The notes beneath the pieces are model-generated. The model did no database searches. It saw only the letters and a program-made list of their open reading frames with translations, and was not told the DNA's origin. DNA of 49,042 bases from Chrysochromulina tobinii (Eukaryota > Haptophyta > Prymnesiales > Chrysochromulinaceae): contig JWZX01002021.1 in the NCBI GenBank assembly GCA_001275005.1, forward strand, positions 1 through 49,042, read 5' to 3'. Position numbers and translations under genes: made by a program. Of this stretch, positions 21,671 to 42,734 are shown piece by piece. Position 1 is the stretch's first letter. Each line of letters begins with the position of its first letter.

Positions 21671-24600
21671 ATGGACTTCTCAAGCGAACTCCATCACGAT
21701 TTTTGCCCCACAACCTCATCTCTGGGACCTCCTCGTCGAGTTCGTCGGCAGCCATCGAGTTGCAGACTGCGCGGCGACGCACGCGCAATGGCGCACGCGG
21801 AGGCGCTCGACCGGCTCGCCCGGCTCGTCGCGAGGGCCGTTAAGTGCGATCATGCCGTGATCATATCATTAGGAGGGGTTGGTGGGCGTGCAAGCGTAGT
21901 GGATGAAAGGGCGCATGGGATGCTCGCCCATGGTGATGAGGAGCTTCTCTCCCATCCCGCGTCGCTCTTCCGTCGAGTGCGGGAGGCTCGGGAGCCTCTG
22001 GCTGTGCTTGATGCGCGGGGCGATGACGTGGCCCGTGAGTGGTCGCCTGTCACTGAAGGTGCCGTGCGCTGCTTCATTGGCATGGCGCTGGTGGCACCAG
22101 TGCAGGATGTCGGCGCCGACGCAGGTGTCGTAGGAGTCGTGGGCGCCTACTGCTGCCGCCCACGCTCGGCCCCCTTCGAGGCGCTCGAGCTCGAGGCCTT
22201 TCGGCTCACGTGCGAGCTGATCGCCGAGAAGCTCACGCACCAGCAGGGAGGTGTGTCCACACCGGCCACACCGGCCACTCCGGCCACGCTGGCCACGCTG
22301 GCCGCGCCGGTCGCCAACCATGCCATGGGGGTCGAGGAGGCTGCCGCGCCGCTCGAGTCGTTCACCGACATCGTTACGAATAACATGCTCGAGATGATCT
22401 CGGTCCATGACTTTTCTCCGGAGGGCGCGTACATCTACGTGTCACCAACGTGCCGCACGCTGCTCGGGTACGCTCCCGAAGACATGGTTGGCAAGCCCGC
22501 GCACTACTTCTTCCACCCAGATGACCTGACGGATCTCAAGAGCATTCACGACGATGTCCTGGGAGCGAAAGAACATGATCCGGCAGCGTACCGTATCGGC
22601 GACCAGCTGCGGCTGCGGAAGGCGGATGGGTCGTACCTGTGGACGGTCACATCGACCAAATCGACGCCGCGCGGCTTTGTGTGCGTCACGCGCGACGACA
22701 CGTACTTCCACAAGCTGCAATGCGCGCTGCGCGATAATCTTCGGAAGTACGAGATGCTCATGGCCCTCTCGCCCGACATGGTGACGCTGCATGCCGCGAG
22801 CGACACCCTGATGCCGATCACGTACGCATCCAAGGCCAGCGAGTCGATCCTCGGCTGGAGCCCGAACGAGCTCGTTGGCCGCTCGCACTACGACTTGTGC
22901 CACTGGGCCGACGTCGCCGCCGTGCAGGAGCGCCACGACAAGATCCTAGAGGAGCATCGTGCTGGCATCGGAGGCTCGACTGTGACATCGTTCCATACGT
23001 GCCGGATGCGGCGCAAGGACGGCTCGTACGCCTTCGTAGAGGTCAGCTCGATGTGGTCCTTTTTGCCGCCCGGAACCGTCGTGAAAATCACACGCGACGT
23101 GACGGAGCTGAAGGCCCTCGAAGCGGAGCGCGCTCTCGCCCTGGAACGCCACGAGCTGCTTGCACGGCACACAGCGGACATCATCTCGCTCCACGCGCCC
23201 TCAGAGCACTTCGAGTTCCTGTACATGTCGCCGTCGGTGCGCATCATGCTTGGCTATCGGGAGGCCGAACTGCTCGGCACGTCCCTGTACGAGCTCGTGC
23301 ACGAGGACGACCTCATCGCGTGGCATTTGGTCATGCGCGGCATCAACGGCAGCAAGATCGGCTCGAATCTCGCGACTCGAGGTGACATCTCCGCGCGCGA
23401 AGAGTCGCCGACGGTGGACGGCTTCTCAGCCGTCCAGCGCCAGCCTAGCGCCGGCGGCGCCCACGCGGCTGCCGGCAGCACGGGCGGGCCCGAGATGGAC
23501 GGCGAGCCAGCTGCGGCCGCGACAGCGCTCCGCATGGCGCGCGCAACGGCTCCGTTGCGGGAGGTCGCCATGCCCACGACGGCGCTCACGCCCGCGACGG
23601 CGCCGACCACGATGGATTACCGCTTGCGGCGCAAGGACGGCTCGTGGGTTTGGGTCGAGACCGTACTCAAGGCGGCGGGAAGCCGCGGCTACGTTTGCGT
23701 GACGCGCGAGATCACGCAGCGCAAGGAGGCCGATATGAACACGAAGCAAGTCATGCATGACCTCTGCACGTCGCATGAGGCGCGTCTGTCCACGTTACTC
23801 TCTGTCGCCTTCGAGTGCATCCTACTGGTGACCTCCGAGGCCACCACGCTGCATCTCTCCACCACAGCCCAGCAGATCATTGGCCTCGAGCGGCTCCTTC
23901 CGCCGCACAAAGCTGCAGCACCCATCGCCAACGCCATCCCCCCTGCTGACATTGACCATCTGCACAACGCCCTCGCCGCCGCCCGGGCCCTGTACACGAC
24001 ATCAGAGGTGCCGCTTACGTCGTGTACAGGGACACCAAGTGGCCCTATTCCCGCCCTCATGGACGACCCTGTCTCGTCCATGGGTGGGGAGGGCGCAGGC
24101 ACGAGTGTCATGTGCGCGCGCGTCTCTTGGCGTCTGCCTCGGCCGGCGGTGTCGGGGGGGTCGGATGAGGAGTCGAGCGCGACGTCGCCCGCGGCGACGT
24201 CACCCGCCGCGGCGCGCAAGGCATCGCCAGCGGGCCCATCGGACTATTTGCGCGCCACTTTGTCGCATCGCGAGACGCCCGTCGAGGGACGTTTCTCGTC
24301 CTCTGACGAAGCTGAGCATGCGGGCTCCTATTGGCTCTTCGAAGGGGTGGCCGAAGTGGTCATGGACGAGGCGGGGCAGTCGGTGCTCGGGCTGCTCCTC
24401 GTTGCCCACCGCCTCGAGCTGTGCACCGAGCCGCCCATAACGGCGCCTGTCGCCGGTGTGCTCTCGGCTCGGCTCGTGCCAACCTATCGCCAACCCCTGC
24501 CGCCGTCGCAACTGCTGCCCATGGACGTTGGCGCGGGGCTCTCAGCGGCGCCCTCGCCCCCCAACGCGCCCCCGTCGGCCGCGACCCCCACTAGGACAGC

Positions 24601-26414
24601 TCCGCGCCGCTCCACGACGACGATGCCCTCGACGCAGCGCCTTCGTTTGCTTGATGCCGCCACCGCAGCGCAGCGTCGGCCGCTGCACCCGGGCACGCCC
24701 TCGGGCATTCGCGAGGCCTCGGGCACCGGTCACCCGACCCGAGTGCCCAACGCAGCGCTTGGCGCCTTCGTTGCATCGGCCGCAGCCTTCTCCATGTCGC
24801 CCTCGGGCACTCGGCTTTCTTCGGCAGAGGAACAGGAGGTGGAGGAAGAGGAGGAGGAGGAGGAGGAGGTGCTTCGCGGTGGCGCTGCAGGCACAACAAC
24901 GCCCCTCGAGGGGGAGGAGAGGGAGGAGGGGGAGGAGGGGGAACAGGAGGAGCAGCCGCAGCAGCCGCAGCAGCCGCAGCAGCCGCAGCAGCCGCCGCAG
25001 CCGCCGCAGCCGCCGCAGCCGCCGCAGCCGCCGCAGCCGCCGCAGCCGCAGCCCACAGCCGCAGCCGCAGCCGCAGCCGCAGCCGCAGGATGAGGAGGAG
25101 GCGCGTGCGGAGGCCGTCGTCGGCGTCGAAAGAACCTTCGCGGGCAGCAAAGCGCGATATTGGTTTGACTACGAGGAGGCAAACGAGACGGAGCCCCAGG
25201 TCGCCACTGACGTAGCTACGTCTTTCGCCTCCTTTTCGGATAGCCTCTCGGCGGCCCCGTCGCTCTCCTCGATGGCGTTCGCCCCGCTGGCCGGAAGCAG
25301 CTGCGACTTTGACTCCGTGGCCGACAACAGGACAGTGTCGTCGAATGCGCCCAACTCGGCGGCGAGCGCGCCGAGTTGGTCGAATGCGCCCAACTCGGCG
25401 GAGGACGGCTCGAGGCCAAACTCGGACTTGAGCATGATCTCGGCCACCACATACCCCTCGACGCGCTCGACGCCGCCGCCCGACGCAGGGTTGAGCGCGA
25501 TGCCCCAGTTGGGCATGGCGGAGGCCGAGGGGGCGAGACCGGGAGCGATAGGAGCGACGATGGCAGCGCTGCCAGCGCCCGCGTCACAGGACCAGTTCCT
25601 CGTCAAGGTGATTGGGCAGCGCAAGGCTCCTGTAGCAGAGGGACAACGCGCCGAGGCACAGCCATTTATGCGCCCCGTCGCGACCATGCGTGCCGCGCCA
25701 CCGCCGTTTGTGAGATCGTTGGCCTCGACAGAGGAGTTTTTCACGAGCGCCTCGGACTCAACCGTGCCGACCAGGCTCAGGTCGATCCCAACGCCGCCGG
25801 CCCTCCCAGAGCACTCGTCCATCTACTTTGACGGCAGCGCCACTAAGCTCAGCGGCGTCGGCCAGGAGCCGGGCACCTGTGCCCTCGGCGGCGCATACGG
25901 AGCAGGGGCGGCGCGCACACCCCCGCCCTTTGCGGTCGCACAGTCGCATGCCAGCAGTGCGCCGCATCGAACGATGAACGTTCACTCTCCGAGTCAATCT
26001 GCGACCGTGATGGCGGTCCTTGACTACTGTTCCTCCGGCGCGCGTGACATGAGCAGCACAGGGAGCAGTCGGCCTCATCGTGGCAACGCGCCCGGGCTCA
26101 TGCCACAGCTCACGTTGGGTGGCTCCGCCGGCGGTGCCGGCTTCTGCAGTGTGAATAGAGAGGACTCCTATGGTGGTGACGTGTCACCATCCGATGCCGA
26201 TGATGACGTGGCTCGGGGCTCGCTCGCGTCGATGCAGTCGTCCGGGGGGCATAGTGAGGTCAGTCGATCGGCGCGGCGGCGGCGGCAGCGCGCGCGCAAG
26301 GCAGAGGCGCGCGCACTGGAGGATCTCGAGGCTCAGATCGAGATGGATCGTCAACTGATGGGCCCCGGGTATAGTGGCGGGGGCGGCGGCAGCGGCGGCG
26401 GAGGAGGTGGCAGC

Positions 26415-28658: not shown

Positions 28659-28947
28659 TCATTCTCTAATAGCAACAGGCACGGTGCGCTCGAGCGCCAA
28701 GATGGGCAGCATGCCGCCTCCGTCGCGCAGCCGAAGGTCGGCATGTGGCACGCGCTGATGGAGTCCGACGCCGGGCACTTTGACGTCGTAGGTGCCGTCC
28801 GCATGCACTGCCATGACACGGCAGCCAGCATAGCCGCTGCCGACGAGCTCAACTGGCGTGCCCACAACTGTCTTGAGCCTGAACGGGCTGCTCATGCCTT
28901 TCCTCCTGCTGCTGCTCCTGCTGCTCCTGCTGCTCCTGCTCCTGTTG

Positions 28948-28979
<32 letters not shown>

Positions 28980-31900
28980 CGATGATAATGATGATGATGA
29001 TGATGTTGGCGGCCCGCGACGTGATGGGCTGCGCCGATGCTGCTCGGGGCTGCGCGTGCCCCACTCACCCTCCACCGCAGCCGAGGCGCGCAGGAGACCA
29101 CTATGCCGATGCTGCCAGCGGTCGAGTTTATCAAGACGGTCCTCTGCCCTGATCGACTGGGCATCGAGCCGCTCCAGCTCCTCCTTAGCTTCATCGCCCT
29201 CCGAGGCGAGGGCCTGACGGTGCATCTGCAACTTTCGCCACTGCTCCTTCCGGCGCGTGAAGTCGTCGGCGAAGAAGCGTTGTTCCAAGCGGTCGAGCGT
29301 GGCGAGGTGGCGCTCCGCGAGACTGCGCATCAGCTCGCGCGCACGGCGCAGCTCGTCGTTTGCCTCGTGCGCTGTCGCCTCGCGCGCTCGGCGTGCCGCA
29401 CGCGCCTGCACCGCCGCTATTGTCGCATCAAGTAAGCTCTCCACGATACTCGCTGCCACCCCACGGTGGGTCGCCGCGAGCCGCGCCTCGGCCTTTTCCC
29501 GTGCCGCCGCGGCCGCCTTCTCGGCCGCCTCCTCGGCCGCCGCATGCACTTCCTCGCTCTCCACCCCTACCTCACCCCGGCGACGACGGCGCTGAAAGGC
29601 AGCACGCTCCTCAGTGGCAGCCTCGGCCGCCTCCCGCTCGATGGCCGCCCTCTCCGCCGCACGCGCCGCCCGTCGCGCCGCCACAGCCAGTGCCTCGAGC
29701 CGTTTCTGCTCGTCCAGCTGATCCACCGTGCCGAATACTAGAGAGCCCAGCTGATCTAGGCCCCCATGCAGCACGCTCACGTCGTTGCGCAGGTCGCCCA
29801 CCGCCTCCCAATCATGAGGCGGGTCGTAATCGAGCCCGAGCGCACCGCGCGGTGTGACCTCGGCCTCGTCCTCAGACTCCGGGGGAGTGTCGGGCCACGG
29901 GTTCTTGACCTCAAACTCCTTGAGAATGCGATCGACGCCCTTCTCGAACACCATCCATAGGTCGGCGAGCGTGCCGAATGAGGAGAAGGCGGGATCGTTT
30001 GCCTCTTGCTCGAGCATGTCCAAGCGCACCTTGACCTGCGCCTCAGCCAGGATCGAGAGGAAGAGCGTGAGCAGTATGAAGACGGCGACGAAGAGGTAGC
30101 ACAGCATCAAGATCACGGAGAAGTAGCCCGACGATCTCTGCATCGCTTCGACGAAGTCAAAGTCGATGAAGAACGCACTCATGACCGAGATCATCGCGGG
30201 CACCTGGTCGTAAAAGTCGTTGACGACGGGGCCCAGAATGACCCAAAGCAGCGACGAGAAGGAGAAGATGGTGATGCCGACCGTCAATGCGAAGAAGAGC
30301 ATATCGACCATCGCATGGCGTAGCGTGTCCGTGGCGATGCTCATCTTCGGAATCAGTGCCGACGAGTACTTGGCTACCTTGAGCAACTGCACGCACAGGT
30401 TGAACGAGAAGAGCTCCTTCAGCCATCTGTACTCGCCCATCAGCTGCCAGTCATCGAAGTAGCCGAGCTCGCGGCAGAGGTACGAGCCCTCGCAATCGCG
30501 CGCCTTGAGCAGCCGCTCGACGATGAGCACCTGCCAGTACGTGAGCCCAAAAATGAGAAAGTTGAGCCAGTCGGCAAAGTTCCACATGTCGGTGAAGTAG
30601 TTGAGCAGGTTGGCGAACCCCTTTTGGCCCATGCGAGCCATGCGCACGAGCTCGAGCAGAACAAACATGACGACGGTGAAGAGGGAGACGCGCGAGTAGA
30701 AGCTCAGGTCCTCGAGCTTCTGCGGATGCGTCGCCATCGTCTCGATGTGATAAGAAGGGAGTACCGTCCCAAGCGACGTGAGCTCGAGGACGAGGGTGAG
30801 ACGGTAACGCACGCCCACGTGGTTCGAATTGAACTGCAGCGTGATCGTGAGCACGCGCGAGAGCGCATCGAGGTAGTGGCCGCGGCGAAGATCGCCCCAG
30901 AGCTCCTCCACGGCCGCGCGCACCACGCCCGTCAACTCGCCATCATTCGTGCGCAGATTGCTCGTAGGGTCGCACAACTGTCGCACCTGCGCGCCGTTGT
31001 GCGAGAGGCGCACGCAGTAGTAGCGCACGTGCCGATCGTTGGTCGCGTTCACCGCACTCGTGCGGAAGTCCTCAACCTCTTCGAAGGAGCCCACCTGGTT
31101 GGGCAGCAGCACGTCCGAGAAGAAGGGGATCACAAGCGCCACGTAGCCAGCGCTCTCGTATGGTTCCCTCGTGAGCGCCACCAGATTCGCGGAGCTCAGA
31201 CCTCGCGGGTCCGCCCCAAGCTCCGTGGCAGAGTACCAGTAAAACGGGTGCACCATCGGCTCGCCCGGGTGCGAAAAGTTGACCCCGTACGGCACCGCAG
31301 AGCCCGTACCGAAGCCGAGCTCCGGGTAGCAGAAGCCGTCCGGGAGCGCCGAGTCGAGCAGGTGAGGATGAGGCTCGTTGGTGCGCGACGCGCCGTACGG
31401 ACGCGGCGGCCGGGACGGCATGGGCGGGGCGGGCGGCCTTGGCGGGGGGGATGGCTGCGCGGGCGCCATCGGCGGCTGCGGCGGCAGCAAGGGCGGCGGC
31501 CGATTGCCCACTTCATAGTGCGCGAGCAGTACCTTGCCATCGAGCCCGAGGGTAGCGTTCGCGCTGCACGTGGTGGCTGAGCGCTCATGGGGTCGGAATG
31601 GTCCGCTCTGCGCCCGATTCCAATTGACCGGCTGGAAGTGGTACCAATCGCTGCTGGGGGCGAAGCGGCACGCGGAGCGACGCGTGCCGTTTGAAAATTC
31701 GGGCAGGCCGCTGGGCTTCCGCCAGCAGCATCCGTCTCGCCTCTGCGCCTCGCACGCCGCGGTGCATTCTTCGACCGTGATGTTGTCGTCACCGAGGAGG
31801 ATCCCTATGAGCGCTTCGTCGCCGCCTCGATCGCAGGCGGCGCCCGGCACAAAGGGCCCACAGGTGATGTCGTAGCACACCTCCGGCGGGCAAGGCGGCT

Positions 31901-33017
31901 CCACAAACGTCACGTTGCCGGGCACGTACCGTTCCGTCCGGAGACGTGGTCGCATCGTGCGCGGCCACGGCAGATCCGGATCGCAAGGTTGGTCGCGCGT
32001 GCGGGCCACACGGAAGGTGATGCCCTCGCTCCAATCCAGCTTGTCCATCCGGCGCACGAGCTCAAACAGGTCGGCAGGCGTCGGGCCGCGCATATTGTTC
32101 GTCGGCGTCTGCTTCGGGTACATGCTCAACGGCCCCTCGCCATCAGGCCAAGCGTCGTCCTGGCACCGCTTGTTTGCGAGCGTGTCGCGTACCCCCACGG
32201 AGGCGTTGCACGGGCCCATGCCGCCAAAAAGTCCGGGCCAGAGCACCTGGTCGCCCCACTTGTAGATGTCGCCGATGCGCTTGATCTGCATGAAAGTCAG
32301 GTGATTGTGCCCAAAAGGGCGCGCGAGCAGCGTGTCGGTCACGGCCTTGTGCACATAATACTCCTCCTTAGTACGCACGGTACCCGCGAACTCTTGAAAG
32401 ACGAGCACGTACGAGATGTAGAGGATCGTCTGGAAGCCGACGGTGTTGACGAAGTTCATGACCTTGTCAAAGAGCGACTCCGTCACCTGCAAGTTGCGAA
32501 TCATTTGGAGTGCCCTATAAAACTCCTCAAAGTCGAGCTCGCCCGAGCCGTCGTCCACGGACTTACAGATGCGATCGAGTTCGCGTTGAGTGATGCGGAT
32601 CTTGAGCACCCTGAGCATCGCCGCCATCTCGGCCAACGAGACGGCGCCGGTGCCGTCGCGGTCAAAGGTTTGGAAGACGCGCTTGAGCAGGACCGGGTCG
32701 TTGGTCGGCTTGCCGCTCCGCGGGCTGAAGAGCGCCACCTTTTGAATGCGCTTGTTGCGAGCGGCGAGCCGCTCGGCCGCCGCCCTGGCCGCGGGCAGCG
32801 CCGTCGCGTCGGGCGGCTTGGCGATCTTGGCCTTCTTGGTGGCGTGCTTCACGAGCGGCACCATGGAGCCGCCCTTCTTGGACGCCGCCGCCGCCGCCAC
32901 CAAGCCGCCCGCGTTGGCCAGCCGCGCGAGGCCGTGGCCGTGCTGTCGGCCCCATATGCCTTGGGCGCCATCGGCCATGGGCGGCGCCATGGGCGGCGCC
33001 TTGGGCGACGGGCACAA
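28659..33017 (-). CDS. Polycystin (PKD2-like) cation channel with EF-hands and Tudor-like tail
   Basis: 1,452 residues. Two EF-hands precede the channel (residues ~113-141, FDRDGTGAVSLAE; ~147-172, VDDGSGELDFEEF). S1 is at ~190-208. The long extracellular polycystin (TOP) domain follows, here enlarged by a Cys-rich PAN/apple-like segment (VEECTAACEAQRRDGCCWR) and a Pro-rich stretch (PPPRPPAPPMPSRPPRP). The canonical part resumes at FCYPELGFGTGSAVPYGVNF. S2-S6 lie at ~770-995, with the pore around FFIDFDF and S6 LFVAVFILLTLFLSILAEAQ. A long cytoplasmic coiled coil (~1090-1330), a poly-Ser tract and a final Tudor/SH3-like module (~1385-1430: GTPVELVGSGYAGCRVMAV, ADGTYDVKV) complete it. PKD2 channels conduct cations, often in cilia. 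Ca2+ regulation by the EF-hands is inference. Confidence 0.9.
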
Positions 33018-33248: not shown

Positions 33249-36200
33249 ATGGACACGGACGATTTCGACGCGGCGCCCCCACCTGCAGCGGCGCCCTCAA
33301 ACCCCTTGATCGCCGAGCCGGCCAAGTCGGGCCGCTCCAACTGCAAGAAGTGCAAGGGCCTCATCGATAAGGGTACACTCCGACTCGGCCGGGTCTATGA
33401 CAACGGTGACCGCATCATGACGAGCTGGTATCACCCATCGTGCTGGCCCGTGCCCAAGAAGAACTTTGCCTCGGTTGACGAGATCGAGGGCTGGGACACC
33501 CTCTCCAACGAGCACAAGCAAATCATCCTCGACCTCGTGCCGGGCAAGCCTCCGCGCGCAAGTGGTGCGGCTGGTGCTTCCGCCTCGCACAAAGTTTCAG
33601 CCAGCGGCAGCAGCGGCGGCGGCGGCGGCGGTGCCTCCGGCTCGATCCTGTCCTTCTTTGGCGGCGCCACTTCCGCCGCCGCCTCCACCTCCGCCGGTGC
33701 CTCGTCCAAGACGGCACCGCAGACCTCGCGGCATCTCGATGAGAGCGGCGGCACCTTCGCCGAGTTTGTCGAGCTATGCGACCGCGTGGCCAACGTGGGT
33801 TCGACGCTGAGCAAGTCGCAGCTCATCTCAAGCCACCTCGACGCACTGCTCGCGCGACGCATCGACCCGTTCCTCACTGTGCGCCTGCTGATGCCGAGCA
33901 AGAGCGGTAATGACCTTCGGGTGTTCTCTCTCAAGGACAAGTCACTGGTCGTGCACATGTCGACGGTGCTGCGTTGTTCCGAGGCCGCGATGAGCGCACA
34001 CCTCGAGAGCGCCGATGACTTTGGGACCACCGCCGAGCACTTTTACGCGCAGCGCCTCGCGAAGATCGCATCCACTGCCGCCGCCGCCGCCGCCGCCATT
34101 GGCAAGGAGGGCGAGGAGGGCGAGGAGGGCGTCGAAGCGGCCGATGACACGGTCTCGACGCTGCCGCCGCAGGGCGCGCGTCTGCACCTCGCGGACGTCA
34201 ACGGCTGGCTCGACCGACTGGCCGCACCCGACACGTCGCCGCTCAGCCTGCTCCGCGAGCTCGTCGGCAGATGCAATCTGGCATCCGAGCTGCGCGTGGC
34301 CATGCGACTAATCTCGAAAGACATACGCATCGGCGGCGGCACGGCGGTCGTGCTCAAAGGCGTGGGCGGCGACTCAGCGTACGATCGTTTTAAAGCGCAG
34401 CCCGAACAGCTACGCGCCATCGTGAGCGAGTGCAAGGGCGGACCGGGCGGAGGCCTCAGCGCCAAGGCCAAGGCTGAGGGTGGCGCCGCGGCGGGCGCGG
34501 GTAGCGGCAGTGGCAGCCTCAGCGGCGTACGCGTGGGGCGGGCGTTCAAGCCGCAGCTGGCGGGCCAGTGCAAGTCCTTCGACGACCCCGTGACGAAGTT
34601 CGCGCGAGGCTTCTATGTCGAGGTCAAGTACGACGGCGAGCGGCTGCAGTGCCACATGAAGAACGGCAAAGTCAAATTCTTCTCGCGCTCGCTCAAGGAT
34701 CCACCCGAGACCAAGGTGCGACGATTGTCTCGGGTTGCCTCGGGTTGCCTCTGATGACCTCTGATTGACACGACTTTCCTCCCTCACGGATTGCCTCCCT
34801 CATCAGGTCCGCGGGCTCGAGGCGGCGCTCTTGCGCGCCTTCCCTGGCGCAGTCGATCTCATCCTCGACGCAGAGGTGGTGATGCGTTCGACGGACGGCT
34901 CGGTGCTCGCCTTTGGCAAGCAGGGCGCGCAGGAGCAGAAAAAGTACGCGGGCGCTCACCCCGCCCTTCTAGTCTTCGACATGCTGTGCCTCAATGGCCG
35001 TGACCTGATGGGCAGGCCCTTGCGCGAACGGCGCGAGGAGCTGCTCGCGGCGCTCGTGCCCTCGGCAGCCGTTGAGGCAAGCGCCGCCAAGCTGATGACA
35101 ACGGCTGATGAGCTGCGGGCGGCCTTTGCGGAGGCGAACGCGGCGTGCCTGGAGGGGCTCATGATGAAAGACGTCACCTCTAAGTACGTGCCCAACGACC
35201 GCAAGCTATGGCTCAAGCTCAAGAAGGACTACCTCACGGACGCTGACTGCAGGTGCGCCAGGAGGGGCTCTGAATGCCACCGAGTGCCGCTGAGTACCTC
35301 TGATGAGGCAGGTGAGTACCTCTGATGAGACCGCTGAGCACCTCTGCATGCCTCTCTCCTTGCGCGGTGTAGCGCGGCGGGTCTCACAATGGTCGAGTCA
35401 GTCGACCTGGTCGTGCTTGGAGCCTTCTACGGCTCTGGCGCGAAGACGCATCTGCTGTCGTCCTTCCTGATGGGCGCTCCCGATGACGACGCGCCGTGTG
35501 GCTGGAGCGCTGTGTGTAAGCTCGCCAACGGCTTCTCTGTCGCACGCCTTGAAGAGCTTCTCAGCTTGTTTACGCAGGGCGATGGAGCGCTCATGCGCAA
35601 GCTCGACAAGGCCGCGCCGCTGCCCTCGTGGTGCCCACCTTCGGCCAAGGGTGCCTGGAGACCAGACCTGGTCCTCAAATCCAATCCGGCTGCGGGCGCG
35701 GGCGCAGTTGCGGGCGCGCCGAGCAGCCTCGTGTGGGAGGTCAAGGGGACCGAATTTTCACCGGGCTCGAAGGCGACTGGTTCGGAGGTGTCCATTCGGT
35801 TCCCACGGCTCGTGCGAGAGCGCGAGGATAAGGGCGTCGAAGATGCCACCTCATTTGCAACCATCAAAGAGATGCTGGACCTCGGGCTCGATGGCAAGAA
35901 GAAGAATGTCAACATTTCGATCGCCACGCTCACCAGCGGTGCCGCGAGCGAGGCGGCTGCGGCGGCGATGGCGGTGGCTGAGGCCGCAGGCACGTCCTCC
36001 GCGGCAGCAGCAGGGGCCTCGTCGGGCGTGTCGCCGGTGCGAGCCGCGGCGGACGATGGCGCAGAAACAGAGCTGTCCGATCAGGACGTAGAAGAGGACG
36101 AGGACGACGATGCACAGCAGGACTCACCCCTCTCTCGCCGCGCAGCCGCCGCCTCGCAGCCCTCCGTGTTTGGCGGCGGGGCCAACGGCAAGGCGAAGGC

Positions 36201-37062
36201 CGACTCCATGGCTCCATTGGTTCCGTCGGCCAACGGCAAGGCGAAGACGACAATGGACATGCGACCCTACTGCAAGTTTGGCGCCAGCTGCTACCGCAAG
36301 AACCCGCAGCATTTGGCCGAGTTTCGGCACGACGCGCCGCCGGCCGGAGGGAAGAGGTTGGATGAGGGTCGTTCCAAAGTTGGACAGGGCAAGGCCACGG
36401 GAAAGCCCAAGCCGGCAGGTAAGCGCAAGCGGCGCGCAGACGAGAGTGAGGACGACGAGGACGACGAGGACGACGAGGGCTTCATCTGTCGCAGTGGCGA
36501 TGAGGAGGATGAAGAGGATGCAGAGTGGCAGCCTGCCCCTGTGCTCCCGTCACGAACGCGTCGCGTGCATCGGCCAAAGACGTACGCTGAAGACGCCATA
36601 GACGATGAGGAGGACGAGGAGGACGAGGAGGAGGAGGAGGAGAAGGAGGAGGACCCAGAGGAGAGCGGTGGCTGTGAGGCCACGGAGGAAGACGAGCCTG
36701 AGGAAGCCCCAGGGACCGCGGCGCCGATGGACGTTGAGAGTGCGCCGCCGCTTGCGGCGGCTGCGGCCATCGGAGCGCCGGCTCCCTTGGCTCCCGCGCC
36801 TGCGCCCGCGCCCGCGCCCGTGCCGGCGGGTGCCAGCCATCGGACTGGCACGTGGGAGGTGCTGCTTGGCAAGCAGTTCAAGGCGTACGAAGAGGCGGCG
36901 GTACAGGACCAGATCGAAGCGGCGTGGCTGGCCGACGAGGACCAGGTGGAAGTGATGGTGCGTGGTTCATGTTACGTGCTGCGCATCTCGGCGTCCGAGA
37001 TGGTCCAGGAGGCTAAGGGCGATCCATCGCGCTGGCGTTCGATCCGCCGGGTCGTGCGATGA
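33249..37062 (+). CDS. ATP-dependent DNA ligase, LIG3-type, with PARP zinc finger, PBZ finger and WWE domain
   Basis: Three exons, 33249-34715, 34807-35252 and 35373-37062, give 1,200 residues. The N-terminal PARP-type zinc finger has Cys32, Cys35, His62 and Cys65. A DNA-binding domain (FAEFVELCDRVANVG...) precedes the adenylation domain with nucleophile Lys460 in KYDGER, LILDAEVV and LEGLMMKD...WLKLKKDYL. The OB domain has DLVVLGAFYGSG and the LIG3-like VSIRFPRLVREREDK (motif VI). The tail, instead of a BRCT domain, has an APLF-type PBZ finger (Cys938, Cys944, His951, His957; CYRKNPQH), long acidic tracts and a C-terminal WWE domain (~1128-1199, ending MVQEAKGDPSRWRSIRRV). It seals DNA breaks; recruitment to poly(ADP-ribose) through PBZ and WWE is inferred from those families. 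Confidence 0.93.
34716..34806 (+). other. Ligase intron 1 (91 bp), repeat-rich
   Basis: GTGCGACG...CCTCCCTCATCAG, phase 0, between PPETK and VRGLEAALL. It contains repeats of the form gggttgcctc and cctctgat(g/t), matching the other introns of the window. Confidence 0.85.
35253..35372 (+). other. Ligase intron 2 (120 bp), repeat-rich
   Basis: GTGCGCCAG...GCGGTGTAG. Exon joining gives KKDYLTDADC-SAAGLTMVESVDLVVLGAFYG, which matches ligase family spacing. The body repeats gagtacctctgatgag twice (about 35293 and 35313) and related units. Confidence 0.8.
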
Positions 37063-37975: not shown

Positions 37976-40357
37976 TCAAGCACGGTTACGCGGGACGGGG
38001 GACGGGGGACGGACACGCGGCTGATGCTGTAAAGCGTACAACTTGGCTGCTTCCGCTTGATGCTTCTTCCGCTTGTCCTCAACGCGTGCCTCAAATTCTT
38101 GCCGACTCATTTCTTCAATCTCGTTTTTCTGGGCCTCTTTTTTTACCTTCGCAGCCATGGCTCTTGCAGCGGCTTCCCGCTCGGCTTCTGCATCCAGCGC
38201 CGCCCGCGTGCGACGCACCTGAGCCGCCTGCTCGTCCGCCACTTTCTCTTCTGCCCATTCACGCTGATATCTTAGTGCGGTCGTCTTCTTACTTTGTACC
38301 TCAGCCGTCCGTCGCTTCATCTCTTCATACAGGTCGCCCCTCATCTGCATCAGATTCGTGAGCCCTAGTTTCACCTCGGCTGCGTCAAGGGAGCCATTGT
38401 GATTACTGTCCAACAGGTCGAATAGTGCAGCCAAGTCCTCTGGATCATCTGCAACAACATCCTTTTTCAGGATCTCCAATGCTTCTTTCGTGAACTCTGG
38501 TTTGGAGATCAACCCGGATCGTTCTCCCCACGATTCAACGAGTGTATGGCCGTGTAGGCCCATCAGGTTGTCGGCCTTGAGAAGTGTTCCTAGGCGGGCC
38601 CCAACTGAAGTCTTCTCAAGCTCTGCCTTAGCGACTATTGCGCTCTCGTATGCTGCCGTAGCATCGATGACCCGCTGAAGACGATCAATTTTGGCACTCA
38701 TAGCAACGAATACTTGGTCACCTTGCTTGGCCTCTTTCTGTGCTCCCTTCACGACGGCACTTAGTTCCTTGAGCATCGCTTTGATCTCGGCTACATCTAG
38801 AAAGCCGCTTAGATCCCGATCGAGCGTTTTGAAGAGTGCATCTATGTCAGGGATTTGAGCGTTCGGAAGCAGCTTCCTCACGCTCGCGCGGAACTCCATC
38901 TTTGAGGTCCTCCCGTCGCGATTTACATCAAAGTGGCGCACCAAATTGTCGATGACGGTCAGGTTACTATCTTGCTGCATCATCGTTGCTATCACCTGCC
39001 CCAGGGCAACTGAAAGGGGGCTCTTCGCATCACCATCAGCAGCAGCTTCTTCTTGCACGCGCGAAACCCCATCTTTTAGTTCCTCTTGTCTTCTTTTTAT
39101 CCGCGTCGCTTCGTTGGCTCTTTCCTTCCGTAACTGGTCGCACTCCAATTTCAAGGCAGCCGATGGAATGAGCTTGTTGAGCTGCCCGCTTTTAGATGAG
39201 TGTTCAAATGAGTCCGCTGAACCATCAGAGCCGCTAGCGGCTTTCGAATCACGCGATGCTCGTAGCTTGGATATTAAGGATGGGGCCGATGGGCTGCCGA
39301 AAGCCCCTCCAGTTTTCTGGGAAGGCCGTTGAGTAGTCGGGCTGTGCGATGACGAGGCCCTTTCTCCAGATATTCCCGTTTTCAATACACCTTGAGCCGG
39401 GAGACTTGAGGAGGACGAGGAGTAGAAGCCCCCTCTAATGATTGGACGAGTCGGCGATATGACCAGCACAACCAAGGACGAAGGCCCTTGAGCTGGACGA
39501 TCGGCACTTTGGCGCGCCGAGAGAAGGGAACGATCGGATTCCGGAGAGGGGACGATCGGATTGGTCGGCGTCAATTTCAGCGATGGCGAGTCTGGCGGGA
39601 GTGATATCCTGAGCCTCGACGTGCCCTGTTTGTGCTGGCCATCCTCGAGGAGCTCGACGACATTTGGATGGTAACGAGCGCTGCGCACGGTGATCCATCC
39701 GAGTGGTGCTTCGACGAGGGGCTTGGGCAGTCCGAGCACCACCACGTGTGCACGCACCGCGCCGTCGACTCGCTTGAGCTCGGTAATGTGCAGTCGTGTC
39801 CCTTGCGAGAGCTGCCTCACATACTCTGAGTCAGTCGACGCGTTCCGCCTCATCTTGAGGGAGTGGCACGTGACCTCAAAAATCGGCCGAGCATACTTGT
39901 TGACGCGCAAGACGCCATCCGAGCTGAGGATTGATAGCCAACCGGCCTGCGTCGTCAGGCGCTCACGGTCTGTGGCACTGCCCAGTGCGTCCGGAGCGAC
40001 GACGCGCATGGAGTCCATCCCAGCCAGTGAAATGTACAATCTCTTTGTGCCATCTTCTAGCACGCAAGTAGCCAACGGCTTGATGACTGTACCTGGAGGA
40101 AGTTCGGCGACGATATCGGAGTTGGGATCCACGGACCGCGTAACGATGGCCATCGCATCGCTTCCTTTCAGCTCGGCGAGTTCAGCTCGCCGACTAGGTG
40201 GCAAGGCAACCTCAAAGAGCCCACTCTCCGGTGGCAAGGGCTGAAACGAAGGCGCTCGACGAGGTCTATGACTGTGTTGATCAAGGGCCTTTGTCCGAGG
40301 ACTGGGGGCCCATTCCTGATTCCAGAGATGCCACGGCATCACTCTCGAGGCACGCAC
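37976..40357 (-). CDS. EF-hand protein with N-terminal SH3-like repeats and coiled-coil tail
   Basis: 793 residues. Near residues 60-260 two or three units look like SH3-type beta barrels (AELPPGTVIKPLATCVLEDG; MRRNASTDSEYVRQLSQGTRLH, ending PLGWITV). A Ser/Pro-rich linker follows. Three clear EF-hands come next: FDVNRDGRTSKMEF (~477), LDRDLSGFLDVAEI (~514) and LDSNHNGSLDAAEV (~653). A degenerate fourth (ERSGLISKPEF) precedes the last. The C-terminus is a highly charged coiled coil (RTRAALDAEAEREAAARAMAAK). Likely a cytosolic or cytoskeletal Ca2+ sensor; partner unknown. Codons are less GC-biased than in neighbouring genes (e.g. 38050-39400). Start uncertain: Met1, Met7 or the Met at about residue 69. 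Confidence 0.8.
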   Translation of the reverse strand: MRASRVMPWHLWNQEWAPSPRTKALDQHSHRPRRAPSFQPLPPESGLFEVALPPSRRAELAELKGSDAMAIVTRSVDPNSDIVAELPPGTVIKPLATCVLEDGTKRLYISLAGMDSMRVVAPDALGSATDRERLTTQAGWLSILSSDGVLRVNKYARPIFEVTCHSLKMRRNASTDSEYVRQLSQGTRLHITELKRVDGAVRAHVVVLGLPKPLVEAPLGWITVRSARYHPNVVELLEDGQHKQGTSRLRISLPPDSPSLKLTPTNPIVPSPESDRSLLSARQSADRPAQGPSSLVVLVISPTRPIIRGGFYSSSSSSLPAQGVLKTGISGERASSSHSPTTQRPSQKTGGAFGSPSAPSLISKLRASRDSKAASGSDGSADSFEHSSKSGQLNKLIPSAALKLECDQLRKERANEATRIKRRQEELKDGVSRVQEEAAADGDAKSPLSVALGQVIATMMQQDSNLTVIDNLVRHFDVNRDGRTSKMEFRASVRKLLPNAQIPDIDALFKTLDRDLSGFLDVAEIKAMLKELSAVVKGAQKEAKQGDQVFVAMSAKIDRLQRVIDATAAYESAIVAKAELEKTSVGARLGTLLKADNLMGLHGHTLVESWGERSGLISKPEFTKEALEILKKDVVADDPEDLAALFDLLDSNHNGSLDAAEVKLGLTNLMQMRGDLYEEMKRRTAEVQSKKTTALRYQREWAEEKVADEQAAQVRRTRAALDAEAEREAAARAMAAKVKKEAQKNEIEEMSRQEFEARVEDKRKKHQAEAAKLYALQHQPRVRPPSPVPRNRA

Positions 40358-40706: not shown

Positions 40707-42188
40707 TCACTTGACGGCGGCATGCAGCATGAGCAGTTGCGGCATCTCTTTCTTGAGCTTACGCAGCAGCTTGTGACACGCGGCGTACGCGACGGGCTTC
40801 GAGACGAGAGGGCTGAACACGGCATAGAGTTCACCAAGGCCGTCCGTCTTGGCCGACGTCCACACTATCGTCATCTCGTCCTCGCTCAGCTGCATGTACT
40901 CGCGCAGCGGTCCCTTGCCCGACGTGTGGTGCACGCGGTCGTGTGCGAGCATGTAGTGGCGCATGAGGCGGCGGACGGAGCTCGTGTCATGGTAGGGCGA
41001 CTGCGGGCCAGCGTGGCAGCCCGTGCGCGGTGCCGTGTATTGCTCGAGCCCCGCAACGCTTGCCGGCACGCGGAAAAGGTAGTGGCGCACCTCCGGCACT
41101 CCGAGCTGGTCAATAGAATACTGGGGCTGGGCAAGGCTCGCAAGGATAGAGGCGCGGAAGTCGTTCTGATGCTCGAGGCGCGCCACGAATTGCGCACGAC
41201 ACTCGGCAACCACGCCGAACCCGTCCGCCTTGGGTGTTAGCAGCACCAGGCACAGCTCGGGCAAGACGAACGACACGTGGCCATACAGAAAGCCGGCTGC
41301 ATTGTATTTCGGTAGGCAGATAGGAAGCCACACCTCGTCCTCGCGGAAGGAAAAGGAGGAGCCGACGGTGTTCATCACGAGCAGCAGGTCGTCCGGGTGG
41401 AGCGCCGTGCGCTTCGGGCGGAGCAGCGTCACCAGGTGGTTGTGCGCGACCAAGACGCCGAAGAGGACGTCCGTCTTTGCGCAGACGCTGAGCAGCAGCT
41501 TGGCGAGTTCGTCGCGCACGAGTGGCGGCATGCGCAGAACAGGCGTCGCCTGCAGCAACAGCGTAGGCTCCACGGCGGCCGAGTGCAGCAGCGAGCGCAT
41601 CACGCGGTCTGTGCCGCCGAGCAGCCCGCGCGCGTCGTATGAGGCGTTGCGCGCGAAGATGCTCTCCACCTTGGAGGTAAGGATCGAAAAGATCTGTGCG
41701 TGCAGGATGCCGAGCTGCCGCCACGTGTGCTGCACGGGCTCGCCGACGCTGCTCGCGGCGACGAGGTAGAGCGGCCCGCGCATGAGGAACACGATGTGGT
41801 GCCCGCCCGCCTTGATATAACGGATCGTGTCGCCCTGGTCACTGACGAACGAGATGAGCGCCTGCAGCACGCCGAACGTGGGTGCCAGCTTGGACTCGTC
41901 GCCGTAACGCGAGAAGATGGGCTTGCCAGCCGAGGACAGGATGAAGATATGCTTCTTGTGCAGCGACCACGACTTGTCGGCGTACGGGTCCTCGAGGTCG
42001 TACCGCCGACGCGCACGCTCCAAAGCGAGCTCCTCAAGCCGAGCACCCGCCGCGACGGGTGAGCCGCCGGCCAGGGCCGCAGCGGCCGAGGCGGCGAGCG
42101 GTGGTAGCGTGTCCTCGTCCTCAGAGTCGTGGCCCGCGAGCAGCTCCGTCGCTGCTGGGGCTTCCGCGGCAGCTGCGCTCATCGACAT
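40707..42188 (-). CDS. MON1: Vacuolar fusion protein MON1
   Basis: 493 residues from the chosen ATG (512 from an upstream in-frame ATG at 42245). MON1 pairs with CCZ1 as the guanine-nucleotide exchange factor for Rab7 in endosome-to-vacuole maturation. The longin-type start is unmistakable: WSLHKKHIFILSSAGKPIFSRYGDE (about residues 74-98 of the chosen form), then ALISFVSDQGDTIRYIKAGGHHIVFL and LYLVAASSVGEP. Later family blocks include LHPDDLLLVMNTV, EVWLPICLPKYNAAGFLYGHVSFV and the C-terminal LSEDEMTIVWTSAKTDGLGELYAVFSP. The N-terminal ~70 residues are Ala-rich and acidic, as is common. No CCZ1 gene is in the window. Confidence 0.95.
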   Translation of the reverse strand: MSMSAAAAEAPAATELLAGHDSEDEDTLPPLAASAAAALAGGSPVAAGARLEELALERARRRYDLEDPYADKSWSLHKKHIFILSSAGKPIFSRYGDESKLAPTFGVLQALISFVSDQGDTIRYIKAGGHHIVFLMRGPLYLVAASSVGEPVQHTWRQLGILHAQIFSILTSKVESIFARNASYDARGLLGGTDRVMRSLLHSAAVEPTLLLQATPVLRMPPLVRDELAKLLLSVCAKTDVLFGVLVAHNHLVTLLRPKRTALHPDDLLLVMNTVGSSFSFREDEVWLPICLPKYNAAGFLYGHVSFVLPELCLVLLTPKADGFGVVAECRAQFVARLEHQNDFRASILASLAQPQYSIDQLGVPEVRHYLFRVPASVAGLEQYTAPRTGCHAGPQSPYHDTSSVRRLMRHYMLAHDRVHHTSGKGPLREYMQLSEDEMTIVWTSAKTDGLGELYAVFSPLVSKPVAYAACHKLLRKLKKEMPQLLMLHAAVK

Positions 42189-42734
42189 GGTTTTTAGCTC
42201 AATGGCTGTGAATGTCCGAACTTCGCAATGGGAGAAAAACTCCAACTGGATAATATGTTACACAGGACCGTGCACGGTTCAGGCGCGGAGTGTACGGCCG
42301 CATCTGAGATCGGACGGCCTTCAAGCTCGGCCACCTCCATGCCCTCCAACGTTGAACGTACTCGTACCCCATCCCGCATTCAAGATTCATCTAAGATTCA
42401 TCCCGATCCCCAAGCCCAACTATAATAATCCGTTAATCGCTATAGCCTATATATATATATATATATATACATACATGCGGCGCGCGCCGCGGAAAGCGCG
42501 CCGCCGGCCTGCGCAACCTCCAGGCGGCCCTACTTGGGCGCGGCCCTACCGGATGCGCGGCCCTTTCGGAACACACAACATTCAACACACGGCATGTACA
42601 CACATAGAAGTAGTGAGTCAAGTAGCTCTCGCCATTGACAAGCTGTGCCTTCTTCTGTCGGCACGCACGCACACGCACTTTGTTGGCTCAGTTCGCCCAC
42701 CTACGCTGAACGAACGAGTCGCCTATCTGGGCGT
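42189..42734. other. Intergenic region, 546 bp, with (TA)n tract
   Basis: 5' flank of MON1 and 3' flank of the ACT gene. It includes a TA dinucleotide run at about 42446-42469 and one copy (42682-42724) of a ~40-bp imperfect repeat whose partner lies in the ACT coding sequence (42857-42897). Confidence 0.65.

What the first reader, a model, noticed from the sequence alone, without database searches (positions are those of the whole stretch)
33249..37062. LIG3-type DNA ligase carrying PARP-finger, PBZ finger and WWE domain in one chain
Seen: a PARP-type zinc finger, a complete ligase core with LIG3-like motif VI (SIRFPR), then a PBZ motif C-x5-C-x6-H-x5-H with the diagnostic CYRKNPQH, acidic tracts and a terminal WWE domain. 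Known: PBZ (APLF, CHFR) and WWE (RNF146, PARPs) bind poly(ADP-ribose), whereas animal LIG3 uses a BRCT domain to bind XRCC1. Inference: this alga may recruit its repair ligase directly to poly(ADP-ribose) with two readers, bypassing the XRCC1 scaffold. I know of no described ligase with this combination.
Basis: partly seen in the sequence, partly recalled or inferred. Interest (0 to 1): 0.9.

Follow-up and report, generated by a model that had tools for sequence, protein, structure and literature searches.

The report
Algal repair ligase with PAR-reader tail
A DNA ligase III-type repair enzyme of an alga carries in its own tail two domains of kinds that usually recognise poly(ADP-ribose), the cell's DNA-damage flag, so it may find broken DNA without the XRCC1 helper that animals use; separate pieces of this design were known, but this combination was not found in print.

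The parts
33249..34715 (+). Exon 1 (predicted): zf-PARP, DNA-binding domain, start of nucleotidyltransferase domain
   Evidence: splice; Pfam
34716..34806 (+). Intron 1 (GT-AG, 91 nt)
   Evidence: junction colinear with P0001/P0002/P0123
34807..35252 (+). Exon 2 (predicted): most of the nucleotidyltransferase domain
35253..35372 (+). Intron 2 (GT-AG, 120 nt)
   Evidence: junction colinear with P0001/P0002/P0123/P0124
35373..37062 (+). Exon 3 (predicted): OB domain, acidic linkers, PBZ, NLS-like run, WWE, stop codon
33315..33533 (+). zf-PARP zinc finger
   Evidence: 57.1 bits vs cut-off 39.3; genome search places it here
33756..34361 (+). DNA_ligase_A_N (DNA-binding domain), residues 170-371
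34551..35223 (+). Nucleotidyltransferase domain (residues 435-628, interrupted by intron 1) with the KYDGER motif (catalytic Lys: recalled)
   Evidence: alignment to human LIG3 3l2p
35446..35832 (+). OB-fold domain (residues 663-791) with SIRFPR motif VI (motif name recalled)
36262..36330 (+). PBZ finger CKFGASCYRKNPQHLAEFRH
   Evidence: 44.6 bits; best of 14 PBZ places of the genome; APLF two-finger chain E 5.3e-16, best single finger 2.4e-8
36421..36435 (+). KRKRR basic run, NLS-like (name from recall)
   Evidence: sequence; similar basic runs in the five other rows, weakest in P0124 and P0126
36481..36585 (+). F...W...Y aromatic residues spaced by acidic residues in the PBZ-WWE linker; APLF-acidic-domain-like (tentative)
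   Evidence: pattern in window, P0121, P0124, P0125; not in P0126 and P0002 (E. huxleyi)
36838..37059 (+). WWE domain (Pfam match 36871-37050)
   Evidence: AF2 model pLDDT 88.6; fold matches RNF146/HUWE1/TRIP12

Best explanation
The gene encodes a nuclear LIG3-clade ATP-dependent DNA ligase that is recruited to breaks by its own tail. A PARP enzyme builds poly(ADP-ribose) (PAR) at a nick; the ligase's PBZ (and, probably more weakly or with altered specificity, its WWE) docks on the chains; the zf-PARP finger and DNA-binding domain engage the nick; the core seals it; PARG then releases the enzyme. In animals the XRCC1 BRCT1 domain reads PAR and brings LIG3 through a BRCT-BRCT contact; here reading and ligation are in one chain and the ligase BRCT is gone. 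Shown by sequence and modelling: predicted gene structure backed by relatives, domains, WWE fold, LIG3 placement, conservation in the E. huxleyi-type group, presence of PARP and PARG genes. Inferred: PAR binding, recruitment, nuclear location, independence from XRCC1.
Against: The adenine-stacking aromatic of WWE domains is Val here, and WWE affinity for PAR varies by orders of magnitude between human WWEs (11-mer PAR Kd 0.0087 uM RNF146, 13.3 uM TRIP12; PMC11269756 passage). A single PBZ binds weakly: tandem PBZs in APLF are over 1000 times tighter (PMC4936651 passage). In E. huxleyi the PBZ has F for the second Tyr and A for the Pro of CYRKNP. The tree warns that the long branch leading to these ligases may distort their place. 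No expression, binding or localisation data. Of 8 related proteins, P0124 shows no WWE, P0126 no PBZ and P0123 neither; these may be cut-off gene models, which I could not tell.
Confidence: 0.7

Rival explanations
1. Only the PBZ reads PAR; the C-terminal WWE is a protein-protein or nucleotide-binding module that tethers the ligase to a partner, taking the place of the BRCT.
For: Val at the adenine-stacking position in 4 of 4 distinct ligase WWEs; no RNF146-like C-terminal extension (described in PMC8853533), as the protein ends at the domain; lowest margin over cut-off among the six domains. Deltex WWEs bind Notch (from the title of a reference seen).
Against: The three polar contacts (Y, Q, R) are invariant, which is hard to explain without a nucleotide-type ligand; PBZ and WWE co-occur in three diverged sequences (window, P0002, P0125).
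Confidence: 0.3
2. An XRCC1-like scaffold still exists in this alga and delivers the ligase by another contact; PBZ and WWE only add retention.
For: The XRCC1 searches had no positive control; 24 BRCT places exist at E <= 0.05; one ORF joins WWE, CCCH finger and BRCT (L016), a possible PAR-reading scaffold.
Against: No match to XRCC1_N or whole human XRCC1; within the fetched loci, XRCC1-BRCT1-like matches came only from contig C112, which carries several BRCT repeats, and the XRCC1 N-terminal and BRCT2 pieces matched nothing at E <= 10; BRCT was not found in this ligase or the E. huxleyi protein.
Confidence: 0.2
3. The ligase serves mainly mitochondria or replication, as LIG3 does in part in animals (recalled), and the tail is incidental.
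For: Mitochondrial role of animal LIG3: recalled. Start of the abstract of PMC8136790 (listing): LIG3 with XRCC1 as an alternative in Okazaki fragment joining.
Against: A LIG1-type ligase (L036) exists; the tail carries a PAR-type finger and a basic run that is similar in relatives. Targeting was not predicted with a program.
Confidence: 0.12
4. The fusion is an artefact of assembly or gene modelling.
For: No transcript data; the relatives are themselves predictions.
Against: Same order of domains in E. huxleyi and OB-PBZ-WWE in ENA P0125; PBZ, WWE and OB domain share one stop-free frame in the window.
Confidence: 0.02

Closest known systems
Emiliania huxleyi protein P0002 (NCBI/UniRef, named 'viral DNA ligase')
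   Same: zf-PARP, ligase core, PBZ, WWE in the same order, 51% identity over residues 430-800
   Different: Gene model carries an extra N-terminal short-chain dehydrogenase (perhaps two genes run together); zf-PARP match covers 50 of 87 positions; acidic linker shorter; no W/Y of the aromatic pattern; no description met in the papers searched
Animal LIG3 (human 3l2p; Octopus P0036)
   Same: zf-PARP and LIG3 core; Octopus LIG3 also has a PBZ between OB domain and C-terminal domain
   Different: Many end in a LIG3 BRCT; no WWE in any LIG3-like row P0003-P0041
Dictyostelium DNA ligase III with macrodomain (Gunn et al. 2016, PMC5087659; passages read)
   Same: A LIG3 orthologue with its own module of an ADP-ribose-binding kind
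   Different: Macrodomain; the passages mention no PBZ or WWE on it
DNA ligase K with PBZ (bdelloid rotifers and others, PMC6264785; passages read)
   Same: A DNA ligase with one or two PBZ fingers in one chain
   Different: Different ligase family; no WWE or zf-PARP mentioned in the passages. The same alga also seems to have one (L008)
APLF
   Same: PBZ fingers and an acidic domain with aromatic residues that bind histones (human Y462, F468, Y476, W485; PMC9328677 passages)
   Different: No ligase; resemblance of the acidic part is by eye only, and a PDB sequence search of that stretch found nothing

Membership tests
DNA ligase III clade | N-terminal zf-PARP finger | tested here: met
   57.1 bits, cut-off 39.3
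DNA ligase III clade | Complete ATP-ligase core (DBD, nucleotidyltransferase, OB) | tested here: met
   Three Pfam domains over cut-off; best solved match of residues 1-828 is human LIG3 3l2p, E 6e-65, ahead of LIG1 6.9e-29
DNA ligase III clade | Groups with LIG3, apart from LIG1- and LIG4-type ligases | tested here: met
   17-row side of a branch 96/95 in a 34-row tree of rows I picked (30 of the 120 listed, the window protein, 3 own ligases; rooted on the LIG4-like one); long-branch warning printed
BRCT-bearing LIG3-alpha (XRCC1 partner) | C-terminal LIG3_BRCT | tested here: not met
   No BRCT in the protein; PF16759 not found in the genome at E <= 1 (no control). 20 of 39 LIG3-like rows P0003-P0041 list PF16759, so it does not define the whole clade
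PBZ finger | C-x5-C-x6-H-x5-H and family score | tested here: met
   44.6 bits, cut-off 22.7; APLF match
PBZ finger | Adenine and phosphate contact residues (F/Y, Y, R) | tested here: met
   Alignment to APLF; residue roles from PMC6264785 passage
PBZ finger | Binds poly(ADP-ribose) | not testable with these tools
   Needs a binding assay
WWE domain | Family score | tested here: met
   21.9 bits whole protein, 28.8 alone, cut-off 21.1
WWE domain | Half beta-barrel plus helix fold | tested here: met
WWE domain as iso-ADP-ribose reader | Adenine and phosphate pocket: aromatic stacker, Gln, Tyr, Arg | tested here: inconclusive
   Gln, Tyr, Arg conserved; stacker is Val in 4 of 4 distinct sequences
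APLF-type acidic histone-binding domain | Acidic stretch with aromatic anchors | tested here: inconclusive
   F-W-Y pattern in 4 of 6 sequences, two of them near-copies; pattern written after seeing the data; no PDB sequence match

The most novel reading that the evidence does not exclude
[quoted passage not shown] A PBZ between ligase core and C-terminal domain may be ancestral to LIG3 (also in Octopus, P0008 and P0029) and lost in vertebrates and insects.
Probability: 0.12. Interest if true: 0.78.

Novelty: new variant of a known kind. Interest (0 to 1): 0.52.

Why it matters
It gives a natural test of what XRCC1 is for: a LIG3-clade ligase that seems to have its own PAR readers and no BRCT. 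If the tail works, PARP-dependent single-strand break repair can run without a separate scaffold for the ligase. With the Dictyostelium macrodomain and the Octopus PBZ, it suggests that LIG3 has gained, kept or swapped ADP-ribose readers repeatedly, so the vertebrate arrangement may be one solution among several.

Tried and rejected
Rejected: two genes or two transcripts read as one (relatives are continuous across both junctions). Rejected: LIG1 or LIG4 identity. Rejected, weakly: viral origin suggested by the name 'viral DNA ligase'; a scan of the viral contigs gave 62 pattern matches, none of which encodes a relative (two peptide patterns only, and records close to the window's genome may be left out). 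Led nowhere: a protein search with residues 700-1200 scored 7,983 candidates and returned nothing, probably because low-complexity words filled the list; a fold of the whole exon-3 frame was poor (mean pLDDT 39.5; the PBZ blocks reached 74-78, the WWE blocks 60-65); a PDB search with the single WWE sequence found only DYNE8 at E 1.1-1.2, whereas the 5-row profile found WWE chains; a PDB search of the acidic stretch found nothing. XRCC1_N, XRCC1, LIG3_BRCT and HPF1 searches of the own genome were empty and without positive control, so absence is not claimed. Literature searches for the combination: (51 and 81 for single domains); several listings were capped (10 of 15, 10 of 23, 8 of 13, 8 of 574), and the library lacks most subscription papers; no listed title or abstract start describes a ligase with PBZ and WWE. 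I saw passages of eight papers and the abstract and start of a ninth, no whole paper.

Full report
What is there. The gene on the + strand at 33249-37062 has three predicted exons with GT-AG introns of 91 and 120 nt and codes for 1,200 residues. Pfam finds, in order, zf-PARP (57.1 bits, cut-off 39.3), ligase N-terminal domain (59.7/24.6), ligase middle domain (144.1/26.2), ligase C-terminal domain (38.2/27.5), PBZ (44.6/22.7) and WWE (21.9/21.1). The PBZ is the best-scoring of 14 PBZ places (E <= 0.05) in the 53-Mb assembly. Its closest solved relatives are the APLF PBZ fingers (E 5.3e-16 for the two-finger chain, 2.4e-8 for the better single finger).

Is the gene model right? OB domain, PBZ and WWE share one stop-free frame of 574 codons. 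At both exon junctions the protein aligns without gap to E. huxleyi P0002 and ENA P0001 (ETKV/RGLEAAL against ATKV/IGLEAAL; DYLTDADC/SAAGLTMVESVDL against DYLGEAAC/DAAEVDMADSVDL), and ENA P0123 is one predicted protein through both junctions. I did not see the DNA of these relatives.

Can it read ADP-ribose? In RNF146 a Gln (153) bonds adenine, an aromatic (Y107) stacks on it, and Y144 and R163 hold the phosphate (PMC8853533 passages; the same scheme in PMC11269756 passages). In the ligase WWEs the Gln, Tyr and Arg are invariant, and the stacking position is Val in the window, P0002, P0125 and P0126. So three of four contacts are kept; binding is plausible but may be weaker or different. For the PBZ, the F, Y and R that stand where APLF contacts adenines and phosphates are present (roles from PMC6264785 passage).

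What kind of ligase? A 34-row tree of rows that I picked (30 of the 120 proteins listed, the window protein, three other ligases of the same genome) puts the window protein with P0001 and P0002 (100/100), and these three with 14 LIG3 rows (96/95), apart from 14 LIG1-type rows, two own LIG1-like ligases and the own LIG4-like one used as root. 'LIG4-like' rests on my reading; its BRCT match is under cut-off. The program warns of long branches. The best solved match is human LIG3 (E 6e-65; LIG1 6.9e-29). The C-terminal BRCT of animal LIG3-alpha is absent, and the PBZ-WWE tail takes its place.

Relatives. With the ligase core as query, 371 proteins matched (only the 7,992 candidates sharing most words were scored), 120 were listed, and P0001 and P0002 stood far ahead (372 and 356 bits; next 210) with the same PBZ and WWE. 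With the exon-3 frame as query, 13 matched. Eight proteins belong to this close group: P0001, P0002, P0121, P0122, P0123, P0124, P0125, P0126. PBZ is seen in 6 of 8 and WWE in 6 of 8 (counting P0121 on rescan, and P0122, whose WWE equals the window's); both together in 5 of 8. P0123 has neither, P0124 lacks WWE, P0126 lacks PBZ. P0121 and P0122 are near-copies of the window gene, and P0001 is a near-copy of P0002 (99%), so the independent sequences with both domains are three: the window, E. huxleyi and P0125. Only E. huxleyi is named, so 'haptophyte' for the window is an inference from this one gene.

PBZ on other LIG3s. Of the 39 LIG3-like rows P0003-P0041, three list a PBZ: P0036 (Octopus sinensis), P0008 and P0029. 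A rescan confirms PBZ between OB domain and LIG3_BRCT in these three. In the tree they branch at different points. So PBZ in LIG3 is not confined to this alga; an old PBZ with losses and repeated gain both remain possible.

The surrounding system. The genome has a PARP1-like gene (PADR1_N and SAP over cut-off, zf-PARP and BRCT matches under it, then PARP_reg and catalytic domain on the same contig), a PARP2-like gene with its own WWE, WGR, PARP_reg and catalytic domain, PARG (six matches on three contigs), 62 PARP-catalytic matches at E <= 0.01, 5 of them under cut-off, 35 WWE matches at E <= 0.05 and 10 zf-PARP matches, one under cut-off. It also has a second ligase with a PBZ (L008): PBZ 36.2 bits, DNA_ligase_OB_2 93.2, adenylation part only 20.3 (cut-off 26.2); it looks like the ligase K described with PBZ in bdelloids, fungi and others (PMC6264785 passages). 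XRCC1_N, whole human XRCC1, LIG3_BRCT and HPF1 gave nothing, each without positive control, so I do not claim absence. BRCT itself was found at 24 places (E <= 0.05); within the fetched loci, XRCC1-BRCT1-like matches came only from a contig with several BRCT repeats (C112).

Mechanism. In vertebrates PAR brings XRCC1 through its BRCT1 domain (PMC4538820 abstract), and XRCC1 brings LIG3 (BRCT-BRCT contact: recalled and in the finding). Here the likeliest course is direct: PAR made at the break is read by the ligase's own PBZ, with help from the WWE. PBZ-driven recruitment of a repair protein that has no PBZ in vertebrates is reported for Dictyostelium Ku70, and Dictyostelium LIG3 has a macrodomain (PMC8529158 and PMC5087659 passages). 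A single PBZ is weak, and tandem PBZs are over 1000 times stronger (PMC4936651 passage); a second reader in the same chain could give such a gain if the WWE binds. All binding steps are inferred.

An extra element. Between PBZ and WWE lies an acidic linker poor in aromatic residues. In the window, P0121 and P0124 it holds just three, F, W and Y; P0125 has these and one more Tyr further on. The spacing is alike in these four (F to W 15-16 positions, W to Y 18-20), with PSRxR- or PTRxR-type residues between W and Y; P0126 and E. huxleyi do not have the pattern, and window and P0121 are near-copies. Shuffled linkers gave it in 0 of 20,000 for each of the six sequences, but the pattern was written after seeing the data. 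The APLF acidic domain binds histones through Y462, F468, Y476 and W485 (PMC9328677 passages). The likeness is by eye and a PDB sequence search found nothing, so it is a lead only.

Verdict. A real and conserved arrangement, not met in the papers searched; a new variant of LIG3 with ADP-ribose readers.

Noticed in passing
L008:115-1692 (-), G000:C1469: A second ligase with a PBZ in the same genome: PBZ (36.2 bits), then an adenylation part (20.3 bits, under cut-off) and DNA_ligase_OB_2 (93.2 bits), with a SWIM-like stretch between PBZ and ligase (SWIM by eye).
   Followed up: partly
L016:487-1815 (-), G000:C572: One ORF with WWE (61.9 bits), CCCH finger and a BRCT that scores just over its cut-off (21.6/21.3): a possible PAR-reading scaffold of unknown kind.
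   Followed up: no
P0036, P0008, P0029: LIG3 of Octopus sinensis and two LIG3s of unnamed organisms carry a PBZ between OB domain and BRCT; not met in the listings.
   Followed up: partly
own genome: Many PARP-catalytic (62), WWE (35) and PBZ (14) matches: an expanded ADP-ribose system. PBZ also occurs with a VPS9 domain (L005) and with ankyrin repeats (L007).
   Followed up: no
L047:1492-3603 (-), G000:C1890: PARP2-like enzyme (WGR, PARP_reg, catalytic) with a WWE domain (22.5 bits, cut-off 21.1) before the WGR.
   Followed up: no
P0002 residues 1-290: The E. huxleyi ligase gene model starts with a short-chain dehydrogenase and is named 'viral DNA ligase'; probably two genes run together and a misleading name.
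   Followed up: partly
28659-33017 (-), 37976-40357 (-), 40707-42245 (-), 21671-25093 (+): Neighbours by Pfam: EF-hand polycystin-type channel, EF-hand protein, FUZ/MON1/HPS1-type longin protein, multi-PAS/GAF protein; no evident link with DNA repair.
   Followed up: partly
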